From contig OZ034967.1 in the NCBI GenBank assembly GCA_964030785.1, positions 59,169,665 through 59,233,664 of the forward strand: a stretch of 64,000 bases of DNA. Direction: 5' to 3'. Made by a program: the position numbers and the translations under genes. Below are positions 2,693 to 34,142 of this stretch, one piece after another; position 1 is the stretch's first letter, and every line of letters begins with the position of its first letter. The DNA comes from Siderastrea siderea. Its lineage: Eukaryota > Cnidaria > Anthozoa > Scleractinia > Rhizangiidae. The notes under the pieces were generated by a model. That model was not told the DNA's origin, searched no databases, and worked only from the letters and a program-made list of their open reading frames with translations.

Positions 2693-2899
2693 ATGCAAAA
2701 TGCATCCGCGGAACTGAACGAATTTGGTTGCCAAATATTTTTCGCCAAATACAATTCTGGACAATTGGTCAATTGTAAAGGGTTGGGTAGGGTTATAATG
2801 GCAGACGAAAGAGATTCATTTCTTCTCTGGAAAAACAGTGGAAAAGTGGAATTGAACTGGCTTGCCAGCGTTACAAGCACGGCACATCGGAGATGGTGA
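2693..2899 (+). other. Short ORF conserved between array copies (function unknown)
   Basis: From an ATG at 2693 this frame encodes about 68 residues. The matching frame in copy 2 (5178-5384) differs by only three residues, and in copy 3 (from 6955) a 63-nt deletion removes exactly 21 codons without breaking the frame. In all copies the frame ends just at a GGAGATG-GTGAGT stretch that looks like a splice donor. No family is recognised. The copies are so alike at the DNA level that frame conservation proves little. It may be an exon relic or chance. Confidence 0.25.
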
Positions 2900-9390: not shown

Positions 9391-12300
9391 AGTAAGAAAA
9401 CCAATCGTTGTTCAGGAACAAGTGCTATTCGAGTCCTTTTATGGCTTCTTTTGATGCTGGGTGTTTTGCTTGTCTCCTAGAATTTACAGGATGGTATAAG
9501 GAAGGAGTAAACGGGCCCAGTCTTGTGTTGAACCTGCTGCCGAGATGGAAGCGGTTGAGAGATTAGAGAGCAATGAAAGTTTCCCTCAGCAAAGGTGCGT
9601 ATCTGTTCTTTTCTGCTATGAGTTTCCCCCAGGTACTGGAAATACTTAAAATCGAAATACTTTGAAAAATCTGGAAACAGGATTAGAGAGAGGCTGGCAA
9701 AGCGGCATTTCTCTCCTTGTCCGGTGCCGCGTAACAATGCTGTTCCGATGTAAAGCAACGGTGTCAAAGTGGTGCCAAGCAATTCGCCGGTTTTACGCAC
9801 TCTGAGTAGTATTTTGGGAAAATTTTGCACACCTACAATTCCCTTTTTACCTTTGTAGTATTTTGTGGCGATGATCAATGAAACACTCACATTACGCTGT
9901 CTCGGGAAAGGTTGTCGCATTTATATGGAACAAATGAAAACAGGCAAACTGACTCACAAACCTTTTAACTCCTGTTTCATAGTTGTCTTAAAATGAGTAC
10001 GAAATACAAACCCGACTGGCGTGCAGGAAGGTTACACAAAAGCAGAAGGACGCACTCATCTGACAACTTATTCAAAGTTTTAGAAAAACCTCGGCAAGTA
10101 GTCAAATGCCTTAAAAAATAACCCCTTTCCCTTGAATTCTGGATTTCGTTTGAATTCTCCGACGGCGAAATGCTGATGCAACTACAAGTGCGAAGGCTCT
10201 TCGTCGCGTATTGTTTCTTCGTACGCTAAAAGTGCGTAAAACTTAGTGCCCGCCGTATGTGAACGCTGATACATGGGGAAGAAATCCTTTTCACAGTTGA
10301 GAATGTGAGCTCTGAAGAACACAGATTAAAGTACCAGATAAGATTGGAACACTGTAATACAAGTTTTTCTTTTTTTTTTTTTATGATAAGTGAAATGGCG
10401 ACTTGGATGCCAATGAAAAGAATGTAAATAACTCTCTCAAGTCGAATACTCAGAAAAAATTCTGAGTCCTCCAGACAGGAGTCGAAGCCATGACCTTCCC
10501 TTTACGCGTTCGGCACACGTTAAGTTCGACGTTTGAGCAAGGCCTTAAGATATTAGTGACTTTTAGATCCAGGTTTCCCGCGAACGGTGATCCGCTGGGG
10601 GTACCATGACCAGTCCCAGACGTCAAGTTTGAGGTTTTCAACGCGCGTTTCGGACGGCTAGATGTACGTTTTCACGTTAGTCATTTACCTCAAGTTTTTT
10701 TGCCTAAATTTTGTGTTATGTCACGTACAAATGCTAAAATCAATGAATTAACCCTATTCTACAAATTGGTTCTTAATAGCAATTCTCAAGCCTTTTGTTG
10801 TCCTATGAAGAAATGCATTGATCCTCGGATCTAATATGGTGGCAGCCTAAGTTGAATGGGTGTTTCGTGATGTTTCATCTTTCTAGAGAGCTGCACATGC
10901 TGGAAAACATACCTTTTTCGAATTTAGCGCAATTTTGATCATTTACAATGAAATTGTCGGGCCTGGTACGTTGTCGGAAGCTTCGAGAAACGGGTCCCGC
11001 CTAGCCTGTAGGCTGATATAAATGTTCCATCTCTTCTTCTACCTCTGTTCCACTTGGAACATTCAGGTTAGGAAGGTGCTCTATACACTACCTCTTTGCC
11101 AAATCTGAGTTCTTCTCATTTTCTTCTCAGTAGAATAGAGTCGTGAGACGACCTTTGCGCAGTTACTTGACCGGATTGGCTTCCTTTCCTATATAGCAAT
11201 ATAGTTTTGTAATGGCCTTCTTCCTTTAATGCATTGTCTTACAAATTTGCTGACATGGTAGACTGGGGAAGTGCTGGCCTGGTCACATATCTCCCAAGAC
11301 CGGTTCTGTAAAAAGGTTCCTTAACTGGCTACAAGAAGGTTTGCATTGATTCTTTGACATTGTCCGCATCCGCTTAGACTGCGAGTAGTCGTCCTATTTT
11401 CCTCAGATCTCATACGCGAGTGGAAATGAATAAATTATGCAAAATGACGGTAAGAACAAGGAGGGATTACTACTCCAGGCTCGGGTGCCTCAATCTTTTT
11501 GCAAGCTTCTCGCTGAAATTAGGGAAAGAAAGAGACTGATCGCAGTCTAGCATCCGCTGTCAACATTATCCAAAGGATTCAACCCCTGGGGGCCCCCTGG
11601 GGAATGTTAATGGCCATTGGCTAATCCCACGGTCCTAGACGCGGATTTGGGGGAAAATTAGTAAGTGGACCGTGTGAGATCCAACGAGAAACTTCACTTC
11701 GGTTCCACCAAGATCAGGAAATTCAACTCTTGATACATAACTCCATCATTCAGTCGCCCTTTCCTTTGACACCATGACAGATATAATATTGAGTTTATTT
11801 GGGCTTTCTTTGAGGCTAACTGGTAGTAAGCTTGATGCCTCTCTGGAACCTGTGATGGGAAAAACAGGTGACTGAGCTGTACTGGGTGTCCAACGTTGAA
11901 CATGTTCGTGTAGGGAGGTAGATGACGGAATATTGCTATTCTGGGCTTTGGTCCAGTTAACTTTGCCCGTAGACCTTCTTAACCCTTTCACTCCCAGAGT
12001 CAGTTATGCCAACTCGTGAATGCAAATACGAAATAAATCATTGTTATGTGATCAGGTGCATTTTTCGCGAAACAAAGGCTTCGTTCCGAAACTATAGGCC
12101 CTCTTAAATGTATGTTCGCCTCTATCGTACAGGTTACAAGAAAGAGCATTAGAGGCATTTGCCAGTCGTTTTGACCTACTCCACCCTCGATAAATATTTT
12201 TACTTGGCTCAACGTGCTAACCGACGTGACGAAAATTGTGACAGTATTTTCCCTTTTGCGTTACCGAATGACGTAATGCTTAAAATCTGATGACTCAGCT

Positions 12301-13627: not shown

Positions 13628-13770
13628 TTCGATTTTGAGACGACATTACGGCTTTATAATAACGGCTAGTTTAGTGGGCGGAGTCGCGGCGCGACAGAGC
13701 CTAATATACACGGAGTGTATTTTCCCCTAACACCCTCATCATAAAGTAATAATGTCGTCTTAAAATCGAA
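13628..13770. mobile_element. Short inverted-repeat element (MITE), same family as 62495-62630
   Basis: The left end TTCGATTTTGAGACGACATTA is matched in inverted form at the right end (GTCGTCTTAAAATCGAA). The ends and the GGAGTC... core resemble the more symmetric element at 62495-62630, so both belong to one family. It has no coding capacity. It lies 0.4 kb upstream of the PKS fusion gene. Confidence 0.6.
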
Positions 13771-14200
13771 TTTTGTGTTTTAATCGCGATCCAATAGAAA
13801 TTGGTACTTTATCGTCGAGAGTTACTCGCGCGATACTTGCTTACCATAATAGTTTTGGTTTTGCAGCAAAATGTTTGAATTGGTTGCTTTCCAACCCAAA
13901 CTGATAGCAAAAACAATTTCTTTATTGCATCAATATGTTTATATATAGATTTTTTTTTCGAAAGACGGGGATCAAAAACAGTTGCTTGTAGGGAAGAACC
14001 ACAGTATAATACAGCTTTTCGCACTACATTACTGAGCAAAAAGTAGAATCGCATTGCTTTGACAGTTCTTGAACCAATCACAAGCCAGCTTTTGAAACGA
14101 CATTATCGCAGAATAATGTCTTCTAATAAAATCAAAAGAGACCATTGGATCGCGTTTGATAGATTAAATCGATCCTGTTTTTACGCTTAGGTCTCTTCAC

Positions 14201-16800
14201 ATGCACGTGAGTCATAAAAGACGTCGCCTTGGATGTGGAACTACCCTCAGAAGACGAAAAATCGTCACCTTTCGCATTCTCACTGCCTACGAGAAAGGGT
14301 TCGAAAAATACGGTTTTTTTCTAGCTCACAAACCATTGGTCCTTCTAATTATCTCAATAACCGTTCTCGCTGCCTGCTGTCTGGGATTAATTCGTGTTAG
14401 TGTTGAAGAGCCCTCAAGACAATATTTTACCGTGACTAATAGCCAGTCCAGGGAGGACTTGCGCCATGCAGCTCAGTTCTTTCCGCTACTTGAAGCACGC
14501 AAAGAGCAGATCATCTTGATCCCTAAACATGGTAAAAACATCCTAAGTGAAGATTGCTTAAAGGACGCTGTGCTAGTACACCAGACCGTTGTGAACATCA
14601 GCCTTTACAAAAATATATGTTTCAGAAAACTTCATTCGGATAACACCATTCAAAGCTTTGTAAAACATGATTGCTTCATCAGCAGTCCTCTTGAGTTGGC
14701 TGGTGCTGATTTTAAACTTTTAAGCAACCTGCCTTCCATTCTGGCTCGTGAATGGAAAAATCCCAACACAGTACTTTCTACTGGGCAAACACTCCAATCC
14801 GCATTGAAGGAGATGCTTAGTGGCTTTAAAGTAGACCAGAAAACAGACCCGCCAACAGCCCGGGCTGACGCTCTTCGATTCATTTACTTTATCACGAAGG
14901 CAACCAAAGAAGAGGGAGACAGAAATATTTTTAACTTCGAAAAGTCTCTCGAGAGTAATGTGTTATCTACGAAACAGCGCTTGAAATGTGCATCAGTCTT
15001 CCTCAAGAATGAAAAAACTACATATGATGCTTTCCAAAGCATCTTGCAACCAGAGATTATGTCTCTATATCTGTCAGCTGTGGTTATGGTTTTACTTGTC
15101 TTTATTGTCATCTACTTTTCTTCCAGTAATCTCGGCTGCCTTACAACAGTGTTACTGATCTTCTTATCAATCCTGTTACCTCTGACAGGCGCTGTAGGTA
15201 TTATCTCAGTGGCAAAAATTCCTCTTTCCCAAACTACCTCTTTCATTCCCTTCCTGCTAATCGGAAAATCAACATCAGACGTTGTTTTCCTCATGGAAGA
15301 ATGGAAACGACAAAAGAAGGTACCATCACTTAAATATCGAGCCAGCAGCTGTGCTGTCAGAGCGGGAATACCCTCAGGAATGGCAGCATTTTGTGGAGTA
15401 CCGATCTTTGGAATTGCAATCAAATCATCCTTTCAAGTCATTTCTGATTTCTTCCTGGCAACACTTCTCACTTATGTCATTGTTTCGGTTGCATCTTTCA
15501 CAATAGCTGAAACTTTGCTATTGTATTTTGGTGGACAGTTAAAGGCATTCAACGCTTTCTGCACGAGAACCTGTTTCAGAAGGTCGTTATTTGCAAACGG
15601 CAGAAGCTTTGGGCCCATACAACAACTAACTGCTACACTGCGGCACTCTCTTGAAAGCGTCCGTGGGTTTCTTATTTCAGTTGGGGGCAAAGTAATCTCA
15701 ATCTTAATTTTGGCTTGCATCGTTACTTTGTGTGTGTTGTCAACCTTACAACCTGGCAAAAGAATAAGTACCACTGCAAGTCTATATCGCGGGCAAAATG
15801 GCAACAACTTCTACGAATTCAATGAAGCACAAAGAAAGTTCTTTGGAAACGAAACCGACGTAAGCATCGTTTTCTCCCAGAAGACTGACTATTCACAGAA
15901 GACTGTGCAAAATAAAATGATCAACATTTGTGAAGCATTAACAGATGCCACCTTCAGTCAGAAAAAAACAGTTTGTTGGATGGCCGCCTTGCTACAGTGG
16001 GTAAATCTTCAAAACATGAGTTGCTCAGGTTCACATTTCTATCGGTGTTTGAAGATTTTTCTTACTCAAAAGCAAAGCATCCCCTTTCGACGAGACTTTC
16101 GCTTTGAAGATTACAATCGTCAATCTCAAATTCTCGCTTCTCGCATTCATGTTCAGATGGCATTAAAAAGCCGATTTAAAGAAGACAAAAGATCGCTAGA
16201 GAAACTGAGAAACGATATGCCTAAACAATCTTCCTTGAAAGCAGCGCCAGTTTCAGAAGCCTTTTTTGAGCTTGATGACTTCTCGTGGCTGGAAAGAGAG
16301 ATGCTCATCTTTCTCTTGATCGCAACTTTTGTAGTCTTTGTCATTTGTCTGTTCTCCACCTTAAACTGTGAAATCAGTTTTTGCCTCGCAGTAACATTCA
16401 ATATACTGGTATTTGGAACAACAGCTATTATGGAACCCTTGTCAATGCACTTTAACCATATCACCGTCATCGCCTTGCTTCTGACAATTATAGTAGCCCT
16501 CAATTTCAGCCTTCAAGTAGCATATTCGTTCGTATTTTCTGAAAAACAAGAAGCAAGTGAACGCGTGAATGACGTTCTGTGCTCAGTCTCTTGGCCTGTG
16601 ATAACTGCAACACTGTTGGGGATATCTGGATCCGTTTCACTAGGCTTTATTTATCGAAGTCTAACAGACATTTTTTTCCGAGTAATTCCTCTGGTATTTG
16701 CATTAGGGTTGATTCACGCTCTCGTAGTACTCCCACCAATAATCACATTCTTTTTCGCCTGTATGAGGTGTTTTGATTCTCAGAATGATCTGGATGTGCT
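14201..16800 (+). other. N-terminal RND/Patched-related permease domain of the fusion
   Basis: Residues 1-867 have the full RND plan. There is a short basic cytoplasmic tail, TM1 (46-66), a large Cys-containing extracellular loop, TM2-TM6 (about 288-443, sterol-sensing-domain-like), TM7 (about 497-519), a second large loop, and TM8-TM12 (about 701-852). The N-terminal FEKYGFFLAHKP and the TM11-12 stretch ending IHALVVLPPI are typical of Patched-domain (PTCHD/ptr) proteins. At the TM4 proton-relay site the usual GxGxDD reads GKSTSD (355-360), so only one of the two Asp residues remains. The matching TM10 site has Asn-Phe rather than an acidic residue. It is intact as an ORF, but transport may be weakened or differently driven. 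Confidence 0.85.
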
Positions 16801-19800
16801 ACGTTTGAAGAAGGAAAAAATGTCGTTGAAATTACGGGACAGAGACATACCACCGGTCAAGTCTAAGCGTCCTGGTATATCAATCGTAGGCATCAGTTGC
16901 AGGTTCCCTGGGGCAAACAGTAAGGACATGTTTTGGAACTTACTCGAGCAAGGAAAGAGTTCAGTTGGTGCATTTCCACGGAACAGGAAAGAAATACACG
17001 AAAAGTTCTTTGAGCTTTATCATCCCAGGCGCTTTGTTAGTGGACGCCTGTGTGCTGTCAATGGTTCCTACTTGGAAGATATTGCAAATTTTGACAACAG
17101 GTTTTTCGGTATATCTAATCAGGAGGCTTGTGGGATGGACCCCCAACAAAGGATTCTCCTAGAGGTTGTGTACGAGGCCATTGAAGACGCTGGAATGAGG
17201 CTTGAAGACCTTCAGCAGTGCAAAACAGGGGTGTTTGTGGGTGTGATGAATTTGGAATACGGAGCTCTTATAACAGACTCATCGAACTACAATAACATCG
17301 ACCAGTTTTCATCAACAGGAATGACTGCATCAGTTCTTGCCAACAGAGTGTCCTTCTGTCTCAACCTAACAGGTCCAAGCTTCGCAGTTGATACAGCATG
17401 TTCATCGTCCTTGACTGCACTGAAACTTGCATGCGATAACCTGCACAATGAAGACTGCGAGATAGCCATCGTTTGCGCACCTAACATAGTCCTCAACCAT
17501 GCCATGCAAATGGTCTCCAGCATTGCTGGCCTTCTGGCACCTGATGGGCGCTGTAAGAGTTTTGACGCTTCTGGAGATGGCTATGGACGTGGCGAAGGCT
17601 TTGCAGCGGTTATTCTGAAACTGGCCCATGCAGCCTCGAGCGACAAAGACGACGAATATTGCGAGATAATTGCTTGTGGTATGAACAACGATGGTCAAAA
17701 TGCCGTACCCATGACTGCTCCCAGCTCAAAGACTCAAGCTGAATTATGTAGAACGGTTTTAGAGCATTCAGGTTTGAGTCCTCAAGACATTGGTTACTTT
17801 GAGGCGCATGGCACTGGTACTGCTATCGGAGACGTTATAGAGGTCACTTCCATTGCCGATGCCTACACCACAGGGACAACAGACACCACACGAAAGCTAC
17901 GAATTGGATCTGTTAAGTCAAACCTTAATCACACAGAATCTACATCCGGTCTTGCTGGGATTATCAAAGTCGCTCTAATGATCAAAAACAAGAGATTTGT
18001 GCCAACTGTTAACGTGCATGTCTTGAATCCTAAACTGAAGTTAGAGGAGAAAGGTCTTTTTGTGCAACAAACCAACGAACCCTGGAAGACAGAAAATGGT
18101 AAACCAAGAGTAGGTGCCGTGAACTCCTTTGGTTACGGTGGGTCAAACGTGCACGCTATCCTTCGAGAAGTTACAACAAAGCAGTCCGTTGACGGAGAAA
18201 ACGTTCAACGTCTGAATCATGTTCTCACTCTTTCCGCACGTTCACAAGACGCTTTGAAGAGGATGGCAGGGCTTTATTCTAAGTGGCTTAATGATAGTGC
18301 CCAAGATATGGATTCAACATTTGTGGAAAACTTATGCTATTCACTGAACGAACGCCGCAGTCAATTCCAACACCGGCTGGCACTTCCTTTTGGATCCATC
18401 TCTGAAGGGTCCAAGTCTTTGGCAGACTTTGCTGGGGACTCCAATGGATGGGAAAAGGTCGTTTCCTATGGTGAAGTGAAGTTTTCTAACCCCAAAATCG
18501 TCTTCATGTTTGGAGGCCAGGGATCACAATGGTACGCTATGGGAAGACAGCTGTTTGAAACTGAGCCTGTTTTTAAAGAGGCTGTATTGGCCGTCAACAA
18601 CTTAGTTCGAGACTTTGGAAAAACGTGGTCTCTTATAGATGAGTTGATGGCAACAGAAGACGAATCGAGGATCGCAGAAAATTCCATAGCTCAACCAGCC
18701 ACCTTTGCTGTGCAGTATGCGACCGCACAACTACTGATGTCTTGGAGAATCTATCCCTCCGCAGTTCTTGGCCACAGTTTGGGAGAGTTTACAGCAGCCT
18801 GTGTTGCTGGGATCATAACTCTCAAGGAGGCTGTGCAGCTGGTATTGACACGGTCTACTCTGCAGGATCAATGCCCCAGTAATGGAGGAATGGCTGCTCT
18901 GGGCATGTCAGAAGAAGAGGCAAGGAGGCTACTGATGGACCTGAGGTTAAGCGCTACACTAAGCATCGCCGCAGTCAACGATGCAAAGAGTGTAACAGTG
19001 TCCGGTGATTCCCAATCAGTTGAGGCCTTAGGTCAATATTTAGCCAATCACGCAAAAGAAACTTTCTGGCGCGTTCTTGGAACAAAACGAGCATTTCACA
19101 GCTCACATATGGAACTCATCAAGAAACCTTTTCAAGCAGCCATGAGGCGCGTCAAGTTAAACCCTCAGCTGTCCAAGATTCCAATGTACTCTACAGTGGA
19201 AGGTGAAGTCATCTCAGGTGAACAGTTTGATCGTGATTATTGGTGGCGGAACATTCGGTGTCCAGTCCAGTTCCAACCAGCATTGATGCACCTGCTCAGA
19301 GACGGTTATAAGCAGATCATTGAGATAAGCACGCAGCCGATACTAGCCCACTACGTCAAACAGATAGCTGTGCAAGAAAAACTTCAAGATCAAGCTGCTC
19401 CAGTTGTTTTGGCAACTCTGCCGCGTAAAAGAGTACCTGTCAGTGATCAAGGCAAGTCCTTTCTGCTAAACACAGTATGCAAATTGTACACGCTAGGATT
19501 TCCGGTTGACTGGACAAGTGTGCAGAGGAACCCATCGGCCAAATTTGTTCGATCGCTTAACTATCCATGGTTAGAGAGCAGCTTTTGGTACAGAGAACGT
19601 CCACCTCAAGGCATAATACCTCATCTCGGTACGGACAAAAGCACGGAGAGCAAAACACATCCGTTTTTGGGAAAGGTTAAGATGACCGAGCTGTATTCAG
19701 GCCTGCACTGTTGGGAAACTGAAATTGACCTCCATCGCTTTCCAAACCTGAAAGATCATGCTCTTATTCAGGGAGGTACTGTGATGCCAGGAGCAACCTA

Positions 19801-22800
19801 CCTGGAAATGGCCTTTGCAATGGTGAAAGACCTGTTCGTCGACGTGGTTGGATTAGAACTAACTGATGTAAGGCTCTCGAGCCTTCTGACGCTGCCTGAA
19901 ACACAGGTAACTAATTTACAATGCACAAATGTGGACGAATTGTTTTCATAAATAATCAAATAAATAGAAAGGCCTTGCACATGCCAACAAACACTCCCAT
20001 TTCTCCACCTCTTCCTGCCTAAATTTGGTTTCCCCGCCTAAATTCAGATAGATGTAGGCTATGAGAGCTTTCTTTCAGTGTTTTGTGTCATGTTGATTGC
20101 GTTCTCGATATTCTTTCTGAATTCTTGTCGACAAGAAGAAATTTCCTCTGAAACATGTTTTTCTCTAATGGTTTTTTCTTTGGTATTATAGGTTCGGTCT
20201 TTACGACTGCGCATTCACAAGGCCGACGGAATTGCGGAGGCCCAGTACAACATTACAAGTGTTCAGGACGATCAGTCCGAGATTAATCTAAGCAGTGGAA
20301 GAATCTCTGTGGATCTTCTGCATAAAAAAGAAATCCTTGAGAATGAAGGTACTACTTCTCTGGATGTCTTTTCGCCTTTTTTAATGTCACCGTCTAGGAG
20401 TTATGTTTAATTTAGACTGTACAACTCTGTTGCATATGGTGGAACTTTCTCCATTTAAAAGCTGTAGGATTGATTTATTCTTTTTTTGCATAGTAGTCCA
20501 GTCGTAAACTTATTAAAAACGACAAAGCCCTTACACTTTTACTAGTTTTGGATGAGTAGTCTCATTTGGAGACTAACTAAACCTCCGAAAATTACAGCCT
20601 TCTGTGCGGGACATTTCAATTTGCCATGTTTTTTGTATCCTATTAGCTTCTTAGCTTTAACCACACAATTTCCATATGCGCGTCTTCAAAAAATGAACTC
20701 CAAAAGATGTCAATCGAAATCGTTCGAACGATTGTCAGAGAGCAAGTACACGTATCCAACAACCTAAGACTTTTATGTACTTCTATCATTTTGTAGCTTC
20801 AAAGCAAGTAGGCGTCGTAGTAAACGAGCTGATGTCAAGCATGAAGAAAATGCCTGTCACCCGATTCAGAGAAATAACAGAAAAGTACGGGTTCAACTAC
20901 GGACCAACGTTCTCCATCATCAAAGAGATCTGGGAGTGCGATAACGAAGGGCTCTGCCTCATTGACATCAGTGAGTCACTTGCCATTCAAAGGGAAACTG
21001 GAAGTTACGTTATCCATCCTTCCATATTAGATGCCTGCCTTCAGTCATGCTTCATCCCACTGGGAAGCTCCTCTGCTGATGGCAAGTCCATTGTGCCAGT
21101 TGGTTTCAAAAGCATTACTCTCAATGACGTGCCATCAACCACCCACTTGTACTGCCACGTCAACGCCAGTGTGGCGGTGTTTGGGAGATTCGACGTCACA
21201 CTCATGAGTCCATCAGGGAATGTTTTGCTAACAATGAGTGACTTTCGCGTTGCGGAGCTGACAAGTTCACGGCGACAACTTCCCTTTGACGAGCTAGCAT
21301 ACGAAGTCCAGTGGAAAGAAGATGAGTTGCAAGGGCAAGGTAAACCTATGCCACAATTAACCTGCATAGTGCTCAAAGACTCCACTGATTTCTCAGTCAG
21401 ATTGCTGACAAAACTTCAGACATTTGATGTTAAAGTTGTCATCGTTAACCCACCAAATGCTGGCTGTTTTGATACCGAACTGGAAGAGGCAATACGAGGA
21501 GTCTTTGCAGACATACCAACCAGTAATTCATCCAACCTAAGGGTCATCAACCTATGGCCTCTGGAAGCATCACTTTTCCAGGAGAATTACGAAATCATTG
21601 AACAAGTCCAACGCCTGGTCTTCAACAGTTCCATCTTTTTATTGAAGCTGATGATTGAGAAAGAGCTGCTCGATTCTCGACTGTTCTTCATCACCGAGTG
21701 CACTCAGCTGCTGGATGCTTGTGACAGGGCTCCTGAGATGATATCCATTCCATGGGGTTCGACATTGTGGGGACTAAGACGAACAGCAAACCTCGAGGAA
21801 TTCAATCTCAGGGTGACTACTGTTGACCTGTGCAATAAGAAAGATCAACACGATGTAGATTCCTTGGTTAACGAGGTTCTGGGTGCAAGCATTGAGGATG
21901 AAGTCGCCTTTCGAAATGGCAAGCGATTCATAAATCGCCTTGTGAGGTCGAAATTACAACCGGAGAAATTAACAAAGACAGCTTCTAAAGAAAACAAGCG
22001 AAGGAGATCACTGTACTTGTCAACTATCCCTTCATCAAGAATACTGTGTCTGCGCCAGCAAAGTTTCGCGAAGCCATCTTCTAATGAAGTCACAGTAGAT
22101 GTTCACTTTTGCTGGACACCTTCAGAATCAGTGTTTGATTTATCCAAACCAAACGGATGTGTGTTTGTTAGCGGGAAAGTGACCGCACTTCCAGAAACGA
22201 AGGATCATACTTTACAGACTGGAGACGAGGTATGTGGTATTATTCCTTCTGGACGTGTTGCACGCTCCATCTCTATACACATCAGTAACGTGTTCGTACA
22301 ACCGGTCAGCCTAACAAAGGAGAAAGCTACATACATCCCTGCATGCCTGGCCTTAGCTTCTCATGCTCTTCAAAGAGCGGCATGCGGTGCACAAAATCAA
22401 AGGTTACTGGTGCACCAAGCTGACCGTGGTCCTGGTCCTGCAGCCGTTGTCCTTGCAAAAGCATCGGGTCACAGAGTGGTTTGCACTGTTTCCGACACTT
22501 GCAAAACGTGTACAAAAGCTGTTCTTGTCAATTTGGGAGCAGAGAGTGTGATGCGGCAGAATTTCTTCGCACTCAGCAATGATTCGAGCGACAAGTTTGA
22601 CGCAGTTTTGTTTTTCTTTCCACCTTCTCCAAACGCTCTTCAGAAAAGCAGCCGAGGTCTGAAAAAGGGGGGAAGAGTCATTATCTTGAGTTCCGAGTTT
22701 GCCGGCAACGTTGTGTTTCCTGCAAACAAGAACATCAAATATGAGAGAGAAGACATATCGGATATTCTACAGTCTCCTCTGGCATTTGAGAAGCTCAGTT

Positions 22801-24852
22801 TACAAAGCCTGGAAGTTTTGGAAAGCAAAGGAGTTTTAAAGCAGCTGCTGGGAATACAAGTGGAGTGTGCAGACGTGGTAGCATCAATCAAAGCTGCAAA
22901 CAGGTCCCTTAAGAAACAGTCATTTAAACAACAAGAAGTGAAAGAATCCTCTGACATTTCCTATGTGATTCAATCACTTACAACACTTCACGACGAACAC
23001 CATCTTGACGACGTCCCAGTGCTTCTGCCAGGCTTAGATGAATGTGGATTGAAAGGGAGCAGGACGTATTTGGTAGCAGGTGGATTGGGAGGATTTGGAT
23101 TTGAGGTCGCCTGCTGGATGGCGGAGAACGGTGCAGGGACTATTGGACTTCTCGGTCGCTCCAAACCCTCAGATGCAAAACGCCAAGAGCTGCGACAGAT
23201 TGAAATGAAAACCGGCGCTAAAATTCACACCTTTCAGGTATGTAAATTATCTACAAGTTGCTGTTCATAAAGGACGACAGGTGTTACGACTTCTTTCCCG
23301 TCACTTGGATGGGATGGTAGGCCATGGATTCGTTATGCCCAACAAATCATTGGGATTTAATACCCAATTACCTGTATACCCGTTGTTAGTAGAAAGACAA
23401 TGTGGAACAAAGCGTATTGTTTGAGGACTGGACCAAGAAGCCCTTAACTAGTACTGAGACTAGGTCTACCCGTTAAGCTCTTTACTGTAAGAACAAAGAC
23501 CAATGAGCTAGAATTTAATCCTTACATATAAAGCCATGCAGAGCCTACTTTGATTTACTCTTCTCATTCTAAGCTCATGACATATTTTCAGGTTGACATA
23601 TCTGACCAAAAACAAATTTCGAATTTCAAAGACCAGCTTCAGTCTCTTCCAAGTGTAGCAGGCATTGTACACACTGCTATGGTACTTCGAGACCAGTTCA
23701 TCAAGGATTTGTCATTTCAGAGCTTTAAAGAGGTCATGGGTCCGAAGATCAAAGGTACGTTTTGTTAATAACCGTAATTAGCTAATATTTATTTACTTTT
23801 ACACTAAACTTCAAAGTTTTGCACACTGGGGCTTGTCAAAGCGATAGCCAGGTTAGGAAATAAAAACGATATATGCGGGCTCTCATTGATTGAAAACTAT
23901 TTCCCCGAACCATATGGTAACATAACAAACTCCCGGTAATATGTACATTCCTGAAAGTTTCGCTCGGAAAAATCGAGCCAACTGAGAAACGCTCTCCTTT
24001 GGCTCCAAAAGATCTGTTGTGTTTATGGCCATCTCTGTACGGAAATGCGGAAGATTTTGTACTCCTTAAATATATACCAGAGATTTGCGCAGCAATTTCT
24101 TTCGAAACTAGGGCTTATTTCCAGTGTTCATCAACAGTACTAAATGAAGTGGAAATTTTTATTCTTAACAGCTCAAATTCGTTAGCAAATGGATATAAGA
24201 AAAATGATTGGATTTAGAAAGGTCAATACACCCTACGTCGTTCTTGACTTGTCACTGCTTTCCCGTAGTATCACATTAAGCCATGAGTAATTTTGACTTA
24301 TTCTTAGGTTCATTTTTACTGCATCAAATGAGTTTGGAAATGGATCTGGATTTCTTCGTCATGTTTTCGTCCATGGCGTCAATCGTGGGTAACATGGGAC
24401 AGTCCTCATACTCCGCTGGCAATGCCTTTCAAGATTCTCTTGCCCAGTACCGGAGACACGTGCTCGGTCTGCCGGCGCTTGCGATCAACTGGGGACCAAT
24501 CAGTGGAGCTGGTGTGATGGAAAGAGAAAGTGGCATCGCTAAGTTGCTCACCATGGCAGGATTGGGCTTTGTAAACGCTAAAGAAGGTAGGCTCTTTGCT
24601 TACAAAAGGATAAGGATGCCCTGAATTCTTTGCACAAGGATTTTCTTCCAGGCCTTCCGACAAATTGCGGTTTCATTTAGGCGAGAAAAATAATATTATC
24701 GAGCGCGGGAACCCGACTGGAGTTGTAACTGGCAAGACAAAACAATAGTAAGAATGTTTATCCTCCCAGATCAATACCTTTTGTAGAAGAATGAAATTCA
24801 GTGAGCTTTAGGTAGTCATCAGCATGAACGATTGCTAACTCAAGGCAAGCAA

Positions 24853-24887
<35 letters not shown>

Positions 24888-27800
24888 GCAACAACAATAA
24901 TAATATAATAATAATAATAATAACTAATAATAATAATGATAGAGAATTATCTCCTTAAGTCACAAGAACAGCAGATTTCTTCTGTATTGAGAGACTGTTC
25001 GGCAATGAACTGAACTGGTGAAATTACTGAGAGCTTGGCAAAGTTTTTTTTATAGCTGAAGCTACTTCATGGATCCCGTTTTATTGATAGCAAAATTTTC
25101 TCAAAATCCGATCCAATTCAAGTTAGATTTACACCATAAATCAAGTATCATTTTGTGATCCTCGTTTGTTCTCCACAGGCGCTAAACATATGGCTAAAGT
25201 ACTAACTGAGGAGCCAGGTCGCTGTCAAATCTCTCTCTTTGATGCGGACTGGCCTCGTTTCTTAAAGAGTAACGCAGGGCTTCGAAAAACTCCTCGACTG
25301 TCGGTCATCAGCAACGCAAGCAGCGCTTCTGACGGTCAGACGAGTTCATCAGAGTCTTTGGCCCAAAGAATCATTCTGGAGAAGGATCAAGAAAAGAGGA
25401 CGGAGCTTGTCAACGAGTACGTTGGCATGTCAGTGACAGAATGGACCGGAATTTCCTCGCTATCTGAGACAGATCTAAACAAGAGCTTGTACAGATACGG
25501 AGTCGACTCCACCGCGGCTCTGACTTTAAAAATGCAGCTTGAAACCAATTTGCAAGTCTCTTTTGAGGTACCGTGTATCATTTATTTACCATGTGCAGCC
25601 TACCCATTCCTACCCCTCAGGCTTAGGGATTAACGTCATTACCTGCCTCCTTTAAACTACTCCTGAGAAGAGAAAGAAAAATTCATCTTGATGTCTTAGC
25701 CCACCATAAAATGCTAAAAACACATATAGGGCCCTATTTCCTAAAAAAACTAAATATGATGTAATTATAAGGGGTATTCCACGATACCTCATACTGCAGG
25801 GATCTATCCTTTTGCGAGTCTTGATTGCTCCGGAATGGAACAGATTATCATGGCTACGGTATCACACACCTCAATGATACGTAGTCTATGTACATTTTCG
25901 AGATCAAACAATTCATAAACAAATTTTTCATGCTTCAGGTTTTCTACTTCATGCAACCTGATACCACTCCTCTAAAACTGGCGAGAGATATCGCTGCCAA
26001 GCTCAGTGGCAAAAAATCAGACTCCCAACAGCCCAAAGAACAGCCTCGAAATAGCGACACCCAAGAAACTGAGCCTGCGCAAAGACAAGCAGATCCCGAA
26101 AGAACTCAACCAGCTGATTTGCCAGGGAACCAGATACAAATTATACCACTGTACACTACCGAAGGCTCAGCTATAAAGTTTTTCTGTGTGCATCCCTCGC
26201 ATCGCTATGCAATGAGTTTGGTGCCGATATCTACAGGATTTCAAGGACAGGTAAAGTGAACAAAGGGAGATCATATTAGTATTTACTTTAGGGCAATACT
26301 GGTTCTCGGTAAGATGGAAGAACATGTCTGGATGCCACAATCACACGAGGAGCTCCCGTTGGTCACGAGTTGATCATGCGTGTCTTAGACGTAGTTGTCT
26401 TTCGCGTTGTAACTATGTTTTGTTTTTAAAGTTAAAGGATGAACGTAGAAAACGTGCGATTAACTGCTTTTACTGACTCAGGAGCGTATGACAAGAATTG
26501 TGGGTTATGACGTAGAACAATGATCACAGATATTGACCACGTTTTTGTTTTATGTTAATAACTCTTTCAGGATTTAGTGTCCTTCTATGCACTGGGCTTT
26601 ACTGACCCAACAGTAGTGGGTGAGGACTGGGGTGGAGTGCGTGAACTTGCCAAACATTACGTTCAACTGATCAGAAAGGAGCAGCGCCATGGGCCGTATT
26701 TTCTTGGTGGATACTCATACGGAGGGCTGCTTGCCTACGAGATAGCTTCCTTGTTGACGGAAAAGAACCAGAAAGTGGAGTTTGTGGCAATGATTGACAC
26801 ATTCCCTTGGTTTCCTCATTCACGGACTATCAGCACTAGACTGGCTTCCATGCAGGAGGATGAAAACTCACAACGTCGACATGTTAAGGTTTGGGGAGGT
26901 GTTTCTATCTCAGTGACTGTAAACTACGTCACAAAATCAATTGGCAAGTGTTACTTGCTTTCAAAAAGGAAAACAATGTTTTGTAAATCGTACGTACAAT
27001 AAACTGCAATTGTTCGTCTAGCTCAATAACGGATTTCACTCATAGCTTTTAGTTGCTGAAGAGGTGGCTAGCAGGGTTGCTAATTTGACCTCGTCCATCA
27101 GGACATACTGAAAAATAAAAATAAATATGAAACAAAAATGTTCAATTACAAATCGCAACTGCTGCCAGTTTAACCAGTTGCCAGCTGTCAAAAGTGGCTA
27201 ATTTATATTGAAAGGTCAAGAAGTAAACTTAGCATCACCGGCTTACAGCACCAGAAAGTGCATGAGAGCATTTTAAACCACTTTCAAGTATAGTACCGCT
27301 TCACGCCTATTTTACAGTGCATTATCGGTCCTGAAAAGCCCTAGTGGGGAATTTCAATAAAGTATGTACGCATGTATACGTATGAGTTTATCCAGGATAC
27401 GGATGTATAATTAGATGTACGGTCTAATTTTAATGAACAAAACAATCATTAAAAGCCGTCTTTCTTTCTAACAAATGTGGAAAATGTTTTCTGACACGCT
27501 TTCTTGTTGACAGTTTCTTTAAAAATACACCTTGTTTCACTGTCTTTCAGTTTCAGTTTGAAAGCCATCTGAGAAAACTGGCAGTAGACTCACTAAAGAT
27601 GACAGCTGATGAATACCAACGCCTGAGAGAGGAACATAGTCAAGAGTGGGTCATCGATGAGTTACAGAGTGGGAGCCTTGAGAGAGGGCTCGCTGCATAC
27701 AATCTGAGGGCTCTAAGAGATTCTTTGCTAAGGGACCATAGCGTCGCCAATAGAACCCACAACGAGTGGCAGCCGCCTGAGGTATGAGACGTCTTTTCAT

Positions 27801-29404
27801 ACTCCTCGGACATCGAAGTTTTGTTTTCCGATGCCATCGATAGAAAGAAACTGCCCAAAATCTTTTTCTTGTGTGAAAAACATGCTTTTGGGCAAATTAT
27901 AAACAAAAACCTTGGTGAGCCAGCTTCAGAGCAAATTTTTCTTGCGGGATCATATAAGGCAATCCCCAGCGGGGGAGATAGCTCCTGACCATCTTACCCA
28001 CTTGAGTAGCCAATCAGAGCACAGGATTTGGTTCATCTTGCCCGATCGCACAGCAAGCAATGAAAAGCGTTCCAACCCTTCCAAGTCGACGTCTTTTCTT
28101 GCGGTTTTGTGAAGGGGTGGGAGATGAGTCTGGGATTGACAGAAAGGGGAGTGAGGGTTATTGAAAACTTGACACGGTAGAGAGGGTTTGATAAAGAGGG
28201 GGACGTAATAGAAATGGGAAGCTCATTAGAACGTTTCCGAGGTGAAACAATGATTATATACTGAGACGAAGCTAATTGCGGACCTTTGAAGAAAACTGAA
28301 TGTAATTTACTGTTAGATTCAAACGTCTCGTTTTGTTTTCTTATTATTTACACGTGTTCACACGCGTGTGCGGCTCTATCAACCTCTCGGTCTACACGCG
28401 TGACATTGCGTTACTTTGCTTATCATGTGATTGCGATCAGTTTTCATCTATGTTATTTCACAATCACCACGTGTTTGGATTTCTCTGTTACTACGTACTG
28501 TCTAATTCACGTTTTATTCTGATTTGTCTTCGCTCTACCGGATCAGAGGAATATTTGTAAGTTTTGCCCCTTCAGTGTTTTTCAAATCGTTAATTAGTTT
28601 CTTAGAAGTATTGTATCTATTGCTTTTCAGTCGAACCATATTCATCAGAATCGTCTCAATTGTCAAATGCGTTCGGATTACCTCTGTGGAAAATCAATTA
28701 AAGTAAGCGTTAAATGGAACTTTGTTTCAAGACTCTGAACTGAACGGTTTAGTGCTTACATTTACAATTCAAGTCAGAAATCTCAAAGTGATACGGCGTA
28801 AACTAATAAAAATGATCGAGTTGGATGGAGTACAGTACTAATTATTTTACCAGTTGATTGTGCTAGTATTTTTTGTCGCATATTGTTTTTTCTTGGTAGG
28901 AATTCACGTGTCTCATTCATACCATCATGTGGAATTGAAGTGAAAAGCTGTGTCCAATAAGGACCAGGTGTTCTAAATGCAACGGGTTTCTGGGATTGAT
29001 GATATTTTTCAAAGTAAACTTTGTCTCCGAAATGTTGTGCTCGGTGCAGTTAAACTTCATAGCTACCTCCGAGTTAGTTCAGTTTTTTTTTTGTTTACTA
29101 GTAGGGATATCTTACTTGTGTTTAGGGAGTCTTTTCTTAATTTTGTGTGGAACCAACATATTGAAGGTTACAAATTTTATTAATAACCAAGGTTACAGTT
29201 ACTTAATAATAAAAAAACTTGTGAGTTGGCCATGCATTTTAACCGCACTGACCACAACACTTCAGCGATTAAATTCCAAAACTCCCAAAAGTCGGCAAGA
29301 TTTTCGTCCTTTTTCTCCTCCGTCCTCTGCCTTTTCCTCTCTTTTATCTTTGGTGTGATTTTGAGGCTGGTTGGATATAAAAAAAAAACCCAAAACAAAA
29401 CAGC

Positions 29405-29448
<44 letters not shown>

Positions 29449-32321
29449 CCTTTTTTGAGCGCTGTTCTGGTGAAAATGCGAAAATTGTCAAGAACAACTT
29501 GTTCAAAGAACCACTATATATTTATATATCTATTGCGTTTCTGAAAGTTCTGTACATGGCGGTCTTTGAAGGATTAATATGGACACATTTACTTAGTATT
29601 TTTATACGGTATAGCTGACAGTCTTTTTAAAAAAACAGGTTCGTTATCGAGGTCCACTTACCTTCCTCAAATGCCAAAACACACGATTCTCGCCCAGACT
29701 TCGCTCATCAGATAGCGCCGAGGAGGCATGGGGCCAGTTAGTGGATGGAGGAACAACTGTGCTCGTTTGTCCTGGTGACCATTACTCCATGAGTGAGCCA
29801 CCTCATGCTCGCTTGACAGGCAGTGTCCTAGCAACGGCCCTATTATTCAGCTACCGTGTGCTGTTCCCAGAATTTCCCAGACCTTTTACGACATTTATCC
29901 AGAGGCGAGCCACGGAAAAACTCTCCAGAGGAGTAAATGTGTTCCTTCACTCCAAAAGAGGTAATAATGGCCTTAAACGAGGAAACTGCGTAGCCACTCA
30001 TACAATGATTTAAGGAAATGAATATCGCAATTAGTCAACCATAAAGGACAAGAGCCTTAAAGGCTCTTGGGTTAGTACACTGCAATATATAGTTAAAACA
30101 TGAAGGAGTTATTAAAACATTACGAAACTGCTGATATATTTTAACAAGTATTTATCACGGTAAATTAAATAAGCGCTAATTGTATTAACCTAACCAAACC
30201 TTAACTGGGAATGACTACAGAGATTAACTCAAGCGAACAAGGAGTATGTCATTTAATTTGAATGAGAAAGAGAAACATGTTACCAGGAGATTCTCTTTCA
30301 ATCAGTTGCCAGGATTCACCTAAATGACTCTAGCTACGTTGCTAAACCCCGGGTGAGGTCTTCCGAGTCCTAAATTTTGCGCTTTCTCATGCGTATCTCT
30401 TTGCCCACCAGTTGGAGCCATAAACCATATTTGGTTAATAGTGTCCAAGTTTGCCTTATCCTTTTCAGCCTTCGCTTTGCAAATGATGGGCACTTCAGGT
30501 TTGGGCAGGTTTGATGCGAAGCTTTTCCAAGTGATAATTTCACGGTTGTGATGTCAGTGAAACCTCAATTTCGTTTTCAGAAGAACACCTTCAAAGTGAC
30601 GGAGAAAGTCCGTGAAACCGGCAACAACATGGACATCCTATAAACCCATCCAAAGCTCGATTTAGGAAATTCTTCATTAGGCAAAGAAAACTTTGTGATA
30701 CAAAAAATACTTAGCAGTACAATTCTCGCTCTGTATGTAAAAATAGGGTGAAGTAACTTTAACTATACATGGCGAGTTGTAAAGCTGAAATGTTTGAAGC
30801 ATAAGATATTAAGAATTCCAACTGGCTGGAGTCTGGCCAGTTGGCTATTTTCATAACTTGCATGACCGTTCTTAAGTTACATTTCTCTGCAGTCATCTGC
30901 AAAACAACATCGTGCCAGGTCCGGTGTTACGGTAGATTTAATCAGGATTTACAAATTTCTTAATCTTAAAAACAGCTCAATTGCAACGCTTCTAGTGATT
31001 ACCATTTCTAGCTTTCTGGTTGTTTCACCGCTCACAGCAGTTATCACCTTTTTGCCTTATAAGGAAATTGGATGCTGAGTGAAAAGCAAGGGCTTTTTGC
31101 AAACACATAACAAAAAGCCAGCAGCGACAACCAAAGTTAAGACCTCGATCAAACAATTACCGTTTTCGCAGGGACAAATTTGTCTTTTGGGGTGGGAAGT
31201 AAAGTCAGCTAGCATCAGTTTGGAATACCAACTGCGACTCAGGAATTGGGAGAGTAGGCTTTTCTTACATTTTTCTGCGGTTTTAATTTTCATTCATAGA
31301 ATCCGAACTGATCAACCTATATGAGGTTACTGAGCTTACTGGGTGCCCTTGATTTATCACTTCACACCCAAGGCGTGCTTGTGGAGTATTTGTAAACATT
31401 CAGTATCTTTTGCAAAACTAAACAAAATTAATATAATGAAAATGTCAAATGGAACCTGAATTTCACGGAATTTTTCAAAATCACTCTATTACACGAGTCC
31501 GTTTAACAAATGTAATTGTTCAGTATATTTATGCAGCATTGCTTATTGTTGGCTAACACTTTTGAAACTTGTTAAGGTGGCAACAAACTATTTAATCCCT
31601 AACGTGGGAGGATAAGTTCAAAAGCGAAGATATTATTTTAAGGGTAACTACAGCTGCAGCTGACCTTTCCACCAATTCTAGGAAACAAGGGACCTCATTT
31701 TGGAGAACTACGTTTAGTGGAAGATGCTTATTACCTCGAACTGGGTTCAAATTCAGACGAAGGAGTAACAGACAAGAAAGACAAAACTAAAAAAATTATC
31801 GACCTGAAAGGTACTCTACCTTATGAATTGCTGTTCATATGTATAGTTAATATTATAGGTTCTTGTAAATCCTCTTTTCGACAAGTATTTCCTATCTTTT
31901 ATCTACTGTTATGTTACACTAAAATGTATAGAGTTTTGATTTCTCAAACTTGCACAGCTCAGTCTTTCCAGGACCGAGGCCTCGTCACAACCTCCTGTCA
32001 GCTCATTTAACAAGCCATTATAATCCCTTTTAATGTGAAAAAATAAATAAATAATAATAACATGTTCCAAATTTTTTAACAATCATTTTTTTAACACCAG
32101 ATCTTCGCATGGTCCAACCAGGAAGACTTGTTTCCAGTGCCCTTAAGTATGCTGGCCGAAGGCGAAGGATTGGAGCTCACCACAGTGGGAACCTGGGTCA
32201 GATTGCCTCCGTCATAACAAGCAAACGGGTTTACAACTTGGAATTCACCAATTATTCTGATTTAAAAACTTTTTACAGCATGATTGAAGGTGTTTTCGGA
32301 GTGACATTGCTGTCCACTTAG
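14201..32321 (+). CDS. Patched/RND permease fused to reducing type I polyketide synthase
   Basis: Twelve exons join in frame: 14201-19906, 20192-20348, 20797-23237, 23592-23754, 24308-24586, 25179-25567, 25939-26250, 26571-26888, 27551-27781, 29639-29960, 31682-31810, 32101-32321. Every border is GT/AG and phases agree throughout, giving 3,555 residues. Order: 12-TM RND/Patched-like permease (about 20-855), KS (891-1305), AT (1433-1745), DH (1820-2105), structural KR (2110-2340), ER-like (2385-2680), KR (2711-2900), ACP (2985-3055), Gln/Pro-rich linker, TE (3115-3430), extension to 3555. The product should be an integral membrane enzyme making a polyketide or fatty-acid-like chain; the chain is unknown. 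The ATG at 14201 is the only Met near the N-terminus, an in-frame stop sits at 14165, and TTAG at 14187-14190 could be an acceptor joining a 5' non-coding exon. KS and KR motifs are PKS-like rather than vertebrate-FAS-like. All active sites are present except in the ER-like part. Confidence 0.9.
16871..19906 (+). other. KS, AT and first half of DH, all within exon 1
   Basis: KS: the active-site Cys1067 lies in DTACSSS, His1203 in EAHGTGT, and His1244 in SNLNHTES (the usual Gly before His is Asn here). This gives a complete decarboxylative condensation triad. AT: the nucleophile Ser1526 lies in GHSLGE and the partner His1633 in RAFHSSH; the xAFH form fits malonyl rather than methylmalonyl selection. 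DH: the HPFLG start is at 1820 and catalytic His1853 lies in DHALIQGGTVMPG, which has one residue more than the usual HxxxGxxxxP spacing. The second DH catalytic residue, Asp2033 in HPSILDACLQ, is in exon 3. Confidence 0.9.
20797..24586 (+). other. DH second half, structural KR, degenerate ER and KR
   Basis: Exon 3 starts in the second hot-dog of DH (YGFNYGPTF, then Asp2033). LWGLRRTANLE (from about 2278) marks the structural KR half. The ER-like part (2385-2680) keeps the MDR fold signature GDEVCG. Its cofactor loop reads HQADRGPGPAA (around 2498) instead of a GGVG-type loop, and the N-terminal substrate/NADPH motif is not recognisable, so enoyl reduction is doubtful. The KR is complete: the NADPH loop GGLGGFG lies at about 2716, with Ser2844, Tyr2857 and Asn2861. 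The VLRDQ segment keeps the Asp of B-type ketoreductases. A methyltransferase domain is absent. Predicted output: hydroxyl or trans double bond per cycle. Confidence 0.8.
24857..24939. repeat. (AAT)n microsatellite
   Basis: Trinucleotide tract with a few interruptions, inside intron 5 of the PKS fusion gene. Confidence 0.95.
25179..29960 (+). other. ACP and thioesterase domains
   Basis: ACP: the phosphopantetheine attachment Ser3026 lies in YGVDSTAAL, and the domain runs over the exon 6/7 border. A linker rich in Gln, Pro, Glu and Asp (about 3060-3105) follows. TE: the nucleophile Ser3198 lies in GGYSYGG, Asp3225 in MIDTFPW and His3380 in PGDHYSM. This is the full alpha/beta-hydrolase triad of PKS/FAS-type thioesterases, so chain release by hydrolysis or cyclisation is expected. 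The TE is spread over exons 7-10. Intron 9 (27782-29638) holds a (CAA)n tract. Confidence 0.85.
29402..29449. repeat. (CAA)n microsatellite
   Basis: Sixteen or so CAA units inside intron 9 of the PKS fusion gene. They create poly-Thr/poly-Val frames that are not genes. Confidence 0.95.
31682..32321 (+). other. C-terminal extension of the PKS fusion (possibly PH-like)
   Basis: After the TE, the last two exons add about 115 residues (3440-3555). The pattern is FGELRLVEDAYYLEL, a Lys/Asp-rich loop, KKIIDLKDLRMV, a basic stretch (AGRRRRIG), then KRVYNLEFTNYSDLKTFYSM and a terminal helix. Alternating strands followed by one C-terminal amphipathic helix recall a PH-type fold, which could bind lipid headgroups. 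This is an inference from pattern only; no motif is diagnostic. The stop is TAG at 32319. No AATAAA was found in the next ~300 bp. Confidence 0.45.
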
Positions 32322-32826
32322 AACTGAATGTCTATTCCAAATGAACAAGTACCTCATAAGTACCAGGTGGCAAATAAGTATATTGTTAACAAGTTTGGCC
32401 TTTCAAAGTTGTCAGCTCTTTTACGTCAATAAGCAATTTCAAGAAATGTTTATGGACACTTACTTCACGATTCGACGCTATAAATTTCTCAGAGCAATAT
32501 CTTGTATTTTATTTGCAAAAGCAAAAAATAAGGAACTGATTCAATTACCTATCAAACTGTGGCTTTTTAAGCAACTCTTTATAAGAGTGTTACATTAGCT
32601 TACAGAGTATTAGACACATTGACGTTACAGTGTTAGACACAACAGGGAACCTTAGATTTGAGTACGAGTACGAGATTGAGTACGAGTGCAAGTATTCGAT
32701 CAATTCTAGTTTGCAGGCTTTACATTATCACATCACAAACCAACCTCATTGCTGAAGCTTCCTTTTCTACTGGTAAACAACAAGGAGGAAGGGCTCTGGA
32801 AACGTGACAGGTTTGAAATTAATATT
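32322..32826. other. 3' flank of the PKS fusion gene
   Basis: AT-rich sequence that presumably carries the 3' UTR. Variants such as AATAAG occur, but I see no canonical AATAAA. Nothing else is recognised. Confidence 0.4.
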
Positions 32827-32937
32827 TTGGAATTATCAACTGAGTTGATAAGGTTAATTGGCCACCGTAAAGAGATTGAAAGCTTTCAATCTCTTTAGGT
32901 GGCCAATTTACCTTATCAACTCAGTTGATAATTCCAA
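32827..32937. mobile_element. 111 bp near-perfect palindrome (hairpin MITE)
   Basis: The two halves are inverted copies over about 55 bp each, meeting at AAGCTTT near 32880. The termini carry TTATCAACTGAGTTGATAA-type sequence, itself a palindrome. A single-stranded copy would fold into one long hairpin. It is typical of short foldback DNA elements. No target duplication is obvious. Confidence 0.75.
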
Positions 32938-32955
32938 CATTTTGTGTTTCACGTC

Positions 32956-33934: not shown

Positions 33935-34142
33935 TGACTCGTAGAACCTTTAAGGTAATTTTAAGAGCTTTGTGAAGGCCGAATGAAAGAGTTGCGAATA
34001 CAGCGCAAAATTGGCGGGAATGATTCCCTAAGCTGAGGAATTTGAAGAAGCTGCCGCCACTCTCCTAATTCGTCGTCTGATTGGTTAGCCAAAGGAGAGT
34101 AAGATAAATCGACTGATAAATCGTACTTTCGAAGACGATTTA

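What the first reader, a model, noticed from the sequence alone, without database searches (positions are those of the whole stretch)
14201..32321. A Patched/RND permease fused to a complete reducing polyketide synthase
One uninterrupted exon encodes 12 TM segments of a Patched-type permease and runs without a break into KS-AT-DH. The remaining eleven exons complete ER-like, KR, ACP and TE domains with every phase consistent. I know of RND lipid exporters encoded next to PKS genes in bacteria (MmpL with mycobacterial PKSs), but not of a single animal polypeptide joining both. It suggests a membrane-anchored factory in which the product is handed to, or sensed by, its own permease. Novelty is my judgement and was not searched.
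Basis: partly seen in the sequence, partly recalled or inferred. Interest (0 to 1): 0.93.

Follow-up and report, generated by a model that had tools for sequence, protein, structure and literature searches.

The report
Coral polyketide synthase fused to permease
Stony corals carry genes that encode, in a single protein, a twelve-span lipid-type membrane pump joined to a complete polyketide-making enzyme, which may build a lipid-like product and pass it straight to its own pump.

Summary
One intron-free exon (14191-19906) encodes a 12-TM NPC1/Patched-type RND permease running in frame into KS-AT and the first half of DH. Eleven more exons complete DH, an ER-like domain, KR, ACP, TE and an unassigned C-terminal domain. 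I add a likely first coding exon (9545-9594): 13 exons, 3575 aa; four annotated coral models have 3533-3578 aa.

The fusion is conserved. Of 129 proteins retrieved, 115 hold both halves in one frame, 113 of them with a 20-30-residue linker. The members with a visible species name come from three stony corals (Desmophyllum, Oculina, Stylophora). In two paralogue pairs the synthase halves are 95-97% identical but the permeases only 60-61%, with the step at the junction.

Best explanation: a synthase-exporter in cis, the covalent counterpart of mycobacterial MmpL7-PpsE and MmpL5-AcpM. Transport, expression and product are untested; altered TM4/TM10 charges also allow a sensor/anchor role.

A 2015 paper lists three Acropora PKSs as "other-KS-AT-DH-KR-...-TE", none in Nematostella or Hydra, and suggests a link to calcification. 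"Other" is probably this permease (not checked). Nine literature searches found no paper naming it.

The parts
9545..9594 (+). Likely first coding exon (MEAVERLESNESFPQQ + split Arg codon); intron 9595-14190
   Evidence: Donor and acceptor in matching phase; N-terminus like P0015 (8 of 17 residues, E 0.13); total length 3575 aa fits annotated models. Likely, not shown
14191..19906 (+). Large exon: permease, linker, KS, AT, N-terminal half of DH
   Evidence: Single open frame, Pfam, donor GTAACT
14201..16810 (+). NPC1/Patched-type RND permease, 12 TM helices, two extracellular domains (about aa 68-285 and 517-685)
   Evidence: Model and structure matches; NPC1 profile; phmmer to PDB
15266..15280 (+). 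TM4 motif Lys356...Asp360
   Evidence: Lys 116 of 116, Asp 111 of 116
16502..16504 (+). TM10 Asn768, in place of a Glu of NPC1L1
   Evidence: Asn in 101 of 117; alignment to NPC1L1
16811..16876 (+). Linker from TM12 to KS; fusion junction
   Evidence: Linker 20-30 aa in 113 of 115 fused homologues; identity step in two paralogue pairs
16877..18016 (+). Ketosynthase (active Cys at 17399-17401)
   Evidence: Pfam, motif
18500..19375 (+). Acyltransferase (active Ser at 18776-18778)
   Evidence: Pfam, motif
19658..19906 (+). Dehydratase, N-terminal half (His at 19757-19759)
   Evidence: Pfam PF21089, motif
20192..20348 (+). Exon: dehydratase, continued
   Evidence: GT-AG, phase
20797..23237 (+). 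Exon: end of dehydratase (Asp at 21030-21032), ER-like domain (from about 22008), start of KR (23070)
   Evidence: Pfam PF14765 and KR, motifs
23592..23754 (+). Exon: ketoreductase
   Evidence: GT-AG, phase
24308..24586 (+). Exon: ketoreductase (Tyr at 24409-24411)
25179..25567 (+). Exon: acyl carrier protein (Ser at 25508-25510)
25939..26250 (+). Exon: end of ACP, start of thioesterase (about 26140)
26571..26888 (+). Exon: thioesterase (Ser at 26715-26717)
27551..27781 (+). Exon: thioesterase
29639..29960 (+). Exon: end of thioesterase (His at 29780-29782), start of C-terminal domain (29930)
31682..31810 (+). Exon: unassigned C-terminal domain
   Evidence: Conserved in 5 homologues; no Pfam match, no credible PDB match
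32101..32321 (+). Last coding exon: unassigned C-terminal domain and stop

Best explanation
A coral gene family encodes a permease and a synthase in one chain. The N-terminal half is an NPC1/Patched-type RND permease whose C-terminus should lie in the cytosol. A linker of about 24 residues after TM12 tethers an iterative reducing type I PKS (KS-AT-DH-ER-like-KR-ACP-TE) to the membrane. The PKS would build a lipophilic, partly reduced chain from (probably malonyl) units, TE would release it at the membrane, and the attached permease would move it to the outer or luminal side. Shown: one reading frame, domain content, PKS catalytic residues, RND fold, conservation of the fusion. Inferred: cytosolic side, coupling, direction, substrate and product.
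For: 115 of 129 retrieved proteins hold both halves in one frame; of the 37 proteins new in the PKS-half search, 26 carry the permease, one is a model starting inside KS, and ten are about 32-36% identical PKSs without it. Linker length is nearly constant (113 of 115 within 20-30 aa). The permease has 71 near-invariant positions, among them residues inside TM4, more than an inert anchor would seem to need. PKS active sites are kept. Precedents: MmpL7 binds PpsE and was proposed to couple synthesis and export (PMC1238737, passages); MmpL5 holds the carrier protein AcpM on its cytosolic side in cryo-EM (PMC12346298, abstract and passages). The medaka PKS sits near the apical membrane and its product acts outside the cell (PMC4604110, section 18).
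Against: No transcript, protein, product or transport data. The TM10 acid is replaced by Asn in 101 of 117, and TM4 keeps only one of the acids that I recall for Patched, so proton or sodium coupling may be lost. NPC1-type proteins are known for uptake from the lumen (recalled). In the MmpL7 work a mutant with much weaker PpsE binding still exported, so contact is not proof of coupling.
Confidence: 0.5

Rival explanations
1. Sensor or anchor: the permease part no longer pumps but works as a sterol-sensing membrane anchor that controls stability or activity of the PKS, as the membrane domain of HMG-CoA reductase does for its enzyme (recalled).
For: Sterol-sensing domain PF12349 passes its cut-off in homologues P0103 (27.2 against 22.3) and P0106 (35.0); TM10 acid lost.
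Against: Both large extracellular domains are kept with conserved cysteines, unneeded for a pure anchor; Lys356 and Asp360 in TM4 are conserved; the window copy itself gives no sterol-sensing match.
Confidence: 0.22
2. Importer or feeder: the permease takes a lipid or acyl group from the outside or lumen and feeds it to the PKS as starter.
For: NPC1 and NPC1L1, its nearest relatives by profile and phmmer, act in lipid uptake (recalled).
Against: The PKS has its own AT and TE, and nothing at the junction resembles a loading enzyme; MmpL relatives by fold are exporters (function recalled).
Confidence: 0.13
3. Separate products: an internal promoter or proteolysis yields free permease and free PKS, and the joint frame matters little.
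For: No transcript data; the two halves evolve at different rates (median identity 52% and 74% over 5538 pairs), and in two pairs the identity changes sharply at the junction.
Against: 115 of 129 proteins keep the frame through the linker, whose length is nearly constant; no intron lies at the junction in the window.
Confidence: 0.1
4. Artefact of assembly, or a broken gene.
For: None found beyond the lack of transcript data.
Against: A 99%-identical protein from another public record (P0001) and 114 other fused proteins; intact frame and catalytic residues.
Confidence: 0.01

Closest known systems
Acropora digitifera PKS models aug_v2a.12941, .16843 and .16847 (Hojo et al. 2015, PMC4604110, Table 2)
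   Same: Coral; KS-AT-DH-KR-(ACP)-TE order after an unnamed N-terminal 'other' part in all three; two lie on one scaffold
   Different: 'Other' is not defined there (one turtle PKS carries the label too), no permease is named, and I did not hold those sequences
MmpL7 with PpsE, Mycobacterium tuberculosis
   Same: RND lipid exporter and type I PKS in physical contact, proposed to couple synthesis and export
   Different: Separate proteins, bacterial, a multi-enzyme PKS line
MmpL5-AcpM complex (mycobacteria)
   Same: RND transporter holding an acyl carrier protein on its cytosolic side
   Different: Separate proteins; AcpM belongs to mycolate synthesis
NPC1, NPC1L1 and Patched1
   Same: Fold, 12 TM helices, two extracellular domains
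   Different: No PKS; TM10 acid present in NPC1L1; family cut-offs not reached
Sea urchin PKS-2 and medaka OlPKS
   Same: Animal type I PKSs of similar domain order; needed for spicules and otoliths (PMC4604110)
   Different: The paper lists no N-terminal extra part for either
Mycocerosic acid synthase and CurL
   Same: KS-AT-DH similarity, 456 and 521 bits; some coral models bear the synthase's name
   Different: No permease; bacterial
HMG-CoA reductase (recalled)
   Same: Sterol-sensing membrane domain fused to a cytosolic lipid-synthesis enzyme
   Different: 8 TM helices without RND extracellular domains; a reductase, not a PKS

Membership tests
Eukaryotic RND superfamily (NPC1/Patched/Dispatched fold) | 12 TM helices as 1+5+1+5 with two large extracellular domains | tested here: met
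   Model (TM5-TM6 region poor) and matches to NPC1, Patched, Dispatched
Eukaryotic RND superfamily (NPC1/Patched/Dispatched fold) | Sterol-sensing domain profile | tested here: inconclusive
   Passes in P0103 and P0106; no match in the window copy
Eukaryotic RND superfamily (NPC1/Patched/Dispatched fold) | Acidic residues in TM4 and TM10 for ion coupling (recalled) | tested here: not met
   TM4 Asp kept in 111 of 116, TM10 acid replaced by Asn in 101 of 117; TM4 not aligned to a solved chain
Patched family (PF02460, TIGR00918) | Family cut-off | tested here: not met
   No Pfam match; TIGR00918 22 bits against 1120; P0106 20.9 against 23. Precomputed PF02460 is listed for P0009 and P0083
Reducing type I PKS | KS, AT, DH, KR, ACP and TE with catalytic residues | tested here: met
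Reducing type I PKS | Working ER domain (fully reducing type) | tested here: inconclusive
   ER-like sequence with changed nucleotide motif RGPGPAA
Animal FAS-like PKS (AFPK) | KS in a clade with animal FAS | tested here: inconclusive
   KS-AT-DH scores 521 bits to CurL and 315 to the best FAS chain, which speaks against; no tree built. The AFPK paper reports AFPKs only in molluscs and arthropods
Coupled RND exporter-PKS (MmpL7-PpsE type) | RND transporter and PKS physically joined | tested here: met
   One reading frame, in cis
Coupled RND exporter-PKS (MmpL7-PpsE type) | Transporter exports the product of that PKS | not testable with these tools
   Needs cell experiments
HMG-CoA-reductase-like sterol-sensing enzyme | Sterol-dependent control through the membrane domain | not testable with these tools
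   Needs cell experiments

The most novel reading that the evidence does not exclude
Stony corals evolved a one-chain synthase-exporter that makes a lipophilic polyketide and releases it into the calcifying space as a nucleation aid, doing in cis what fish ear stones and sea urchin spicules do with a PKS and an unknown export step; duplicate copies carry different permeases while gene conversion keeps the synthase uniform.
Probability: 0.17. Interest if true: 0.95.

Novelty: new variant of a known kind. Interest (0 to 1): 0.82.

Why it matters
If the coupling holds, this is a natural polyketide line wired covalently to its own RND-type pump, so the handover from ACP or TE to a transporter could be studied in one chain. 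It probably names the part left as 'other' in the 2015 list of coral PKSs and makes that paper's suggested PKS-calcification link testable: find where the protein sits and what it makes. It also gives corals a native polyketide family, a possible source of metabolites usually credited to microbes.

Tried and rejected
Two neighbouring genes or chance read-through: rejected. Animal FAS as nearest relative: PDB bit scores favour bacterial PKSs; no tree was built. C-terminal domain: no Pfam match at E 10 for two sequences, only two matches at E 0.57 and 0.94 in the PDB; my impression of a PH-like pattern is recollection only. TM4 against solved chains: no hits. Phage records: no match.

Results that do not help the bold reading: the coral skeletal-proteome paper PMC4890752 has no occurrence of 'polyketide', and the Acropora KEGG paper PMC3750612 none either. 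Hojo et al. use 'other' also for one turtle PKS and say that pks genes may be overlooked in incomplete genomes. Not every paralogue pair shows the step at the junction: P0002 and P0008 are 87% and 88% identical in the two halves. P0090 and P0091 have the permease without KS. A heat-stress paper reports a polyketide synthase over-expressed in a coral and its alga (PMC8484447, one passage); whether it is this gene is unknown.

Limits: the protein searches scored about 8000 candidates each; one search listed 120 of 7609 hits and took only candidates of 0.55-1.75 times the query length, so free-standing relatives of either half could be missed, and absence from anemones or octocorals is not shown by me. 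The species of most proteins and of the window are unknown. Co-location of paralogues is judged from equal longest-contig lengths. The second structure job and most cap-free annotation tools were not used.

Full report

GENE MODEL. Four annotated proteins align through to the C-terminus: P0099 (3570 aa), P0101 (3578) and P0103 (3574, 'mycocerosic acid synthase-like isoform X4') of Oculina patagonica and P0106 (3533) of Stylophora pistillata. The three Oculina models start some 20-30 aa earlier than ATG 14201. An acceptor lies at 14190/14191, and 9545-9594 encodes MEAVERLESNESFPQQ with a donor in the right phase; joined, the protein has 3575 aa. The exon's own similarity is weak (47% over 17 aa to P0015, E 0.13), so I call it likely. 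No transcript was available.

CATALYTIC PARTS. In an alignment with eight homologues, several of them incomplete (P0063, P0100, P0118, P0119), the window protein has KS Cys/His/His, AT Ser/His, DH His/Asp, KR glycine motif and Tyr, ACP Ser, and TE Ser/Asp/His (motifs recalled). The ER-like region reads RGPGPAA where a GGVG-type motif is expected (recalled): 5 of 8 homologues agree exactly, 2 differ at one position, P0118 at two. ER activity is therefore doubtful. AFHSSH in AT suggests malonyl-CoA (recalled rule). After TE comes a domain (aa 3430-3555); the 134-aa C-terminal pieces of five homologues are 65-77% identical to the window's, without Pfam match or credible PDB match.

THE FUSION IS A FAMILY. 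A search with the permease half found 88 proteins; one restricted to shorter proteins found 8, of which 4 were new; a search with the PKS half of P0063 listed 120 of 7609 hits, 37 of them new. Of the 129 proteins held, 115 have a permease match reaching profile position 800 plus a PKS match; P0076 has both, but its permease match ends at position 742; P0090 and P0091 have the permease only; P0119 has the PKS only and begins inside KS; P0120-P0129 are PKSs without the permease, bacterial where a name is shown. The linker is 20-30 aa in 113 of the 115. Where a species name was visible it was Desmophyllum pertusum, Oculina patagonica or Stylophora pistillata, all Scleractinia; most rows carry no name and that of P0118 is cut off. 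Up to six family proteins share one longest-contig length, and Desmophyllum locus tags OS493_013721 to _013735 lie close together, which suggests clusters. The window itself holds one copy.

CONSTRAINT AND CHARGE. In an alignment of 93 rows, 71 permease positions are at least 97% conserved; nine cysteines are conserved above 90%. TM4 reads GKxxxD, with Lys356 in 116 of 116 and Asp360 in 111 of 116; TM10 has Asn768 in 101 of 117, aligned with a Glu of NPC1L1. A conserved Lys-Asp pair inside TM4 speaks for a working though altered charge relay; loss of the TM10 acid speaks against ordinary coupling. I cannot decide between these.

RECOMBINATION AT THE JUNCTION. The window protein and P0012 are 97% identical in KS-AT-DH but 60% in the permease, with the change at about aa 890-900. 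By permease, P0012 is closer to P0004 and P0033 (67%) than to the window (60%); by PKS it is closest to the window. This fits gene conversion of the synthase half, or exchange of permeases, between copies. It is not universal: P0002 and P0008 are 87% and 88%. Over 5538 pairs the medians are 52% (permease) and 74% (PKS).

ORIGIN. The PKS half scores 577 bits in two stretches against 7zma and 521 against CurL, 456 against mycocerosic acid synthase, 397 against lovastatin nonaketide synthase and 315 against the best fatty acid synthase chain. Hojo et al. report that animal PKSs lie apart from animal FASs and near microbial PKSs (PMC4604110, section 19). I built no tree.

HOW IT MAY WORK. An RND C-terminus is cytosolic (established for the family), so the PKS would sit on the cytosolic face on a tether of about 24 residues. 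KS dimers would pair two permeases (inference). Contact has precedents: MmpL7 binds PpsE and was proposed to coordinate synthesis with export (PMC1238737, passages), although a mutant with much weaker binding still exported; and MmpL5 holds AcpM on its cytosolic side in cryo-EM structures (PMC12346298, abstract and passages). The main rival is a sterol-sensing anchor. Direction, substrate and coupling are not shown.

WHAT WAS KNOWN. Hojo et al. 2015 list three Acropora digitifera PKSs as 'other-KS-AT-DH-KR-ACP*-TE' (one) and 'other-KS-AT-DH-KR-TE' (two, on one scaffold), none in Nematostella or Hydra, and suggest that coral PKSs serve calcification (sections 17-19 and passages). 'Other' is undefined there and is also used for one turtle PKS. 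In medaka the PKS is apical and its extractable product restores otoliths; in sea urchin PKS-2 is needed for spicules. Their coral 'other' is probably this permease, but I did not hold those sequences. The AFPK paper (abstract, section 7 and passages) reports PKSs in every animal phylum it studied except sponges and ctenophores, and AFPKs only in molluscs and arthropods. Nine literature searches showed no paper that names a permease-PKS fusion; I saw listings of at most 25 papers each, and the library holds open-licence papers only. A tenth search concerned MmpL-AcpM.

JUDGEMENT. I rate it a new variant of a known kind (coupled exporter and synthase), with a fused architecture of which I found no description.

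Noticed in passing
799-9389: Array of direct repeats with units of roughly 1.7-2.5 kb, upstream of the gene and ending just before the likely first exon; Tandem Repeats Finder lists only short arrays there.
   Followed up: partly
39968-43160, minus strand: Pieces of a hAT-type transposase gene (Dimer_Tnp_hAT, DUF4371) in two open frames.
   Followed up: partly
573-804, 32821-32943, 62495-62630: Three near-palindromic stretches (87%, 94% and 79% self-complementary), possibly foldback elements.
   Followed up: no
29930-29960, 31682-31810, 32101-32321: C-terminal domain after the thioesterase, conserved in five coral homologues, without Pfam match or credible PDB match.
   Followed up: partly
Proteins P0012 and P0041/P0071 against the window protein and each other: Synthase halves nearly identical while permease halves are only 60-61% identical, with a sharp step at the junction.
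   Followed up: partly
Proteins P0090 and P0091: Family permeases whose open frame ends at or near the junction without KS; broken copies, contig ends or true free permeases.
   Followed up: no
33964-34434, minus strand: Open frame of 157 codons without Pfam match.
   Followed up: no
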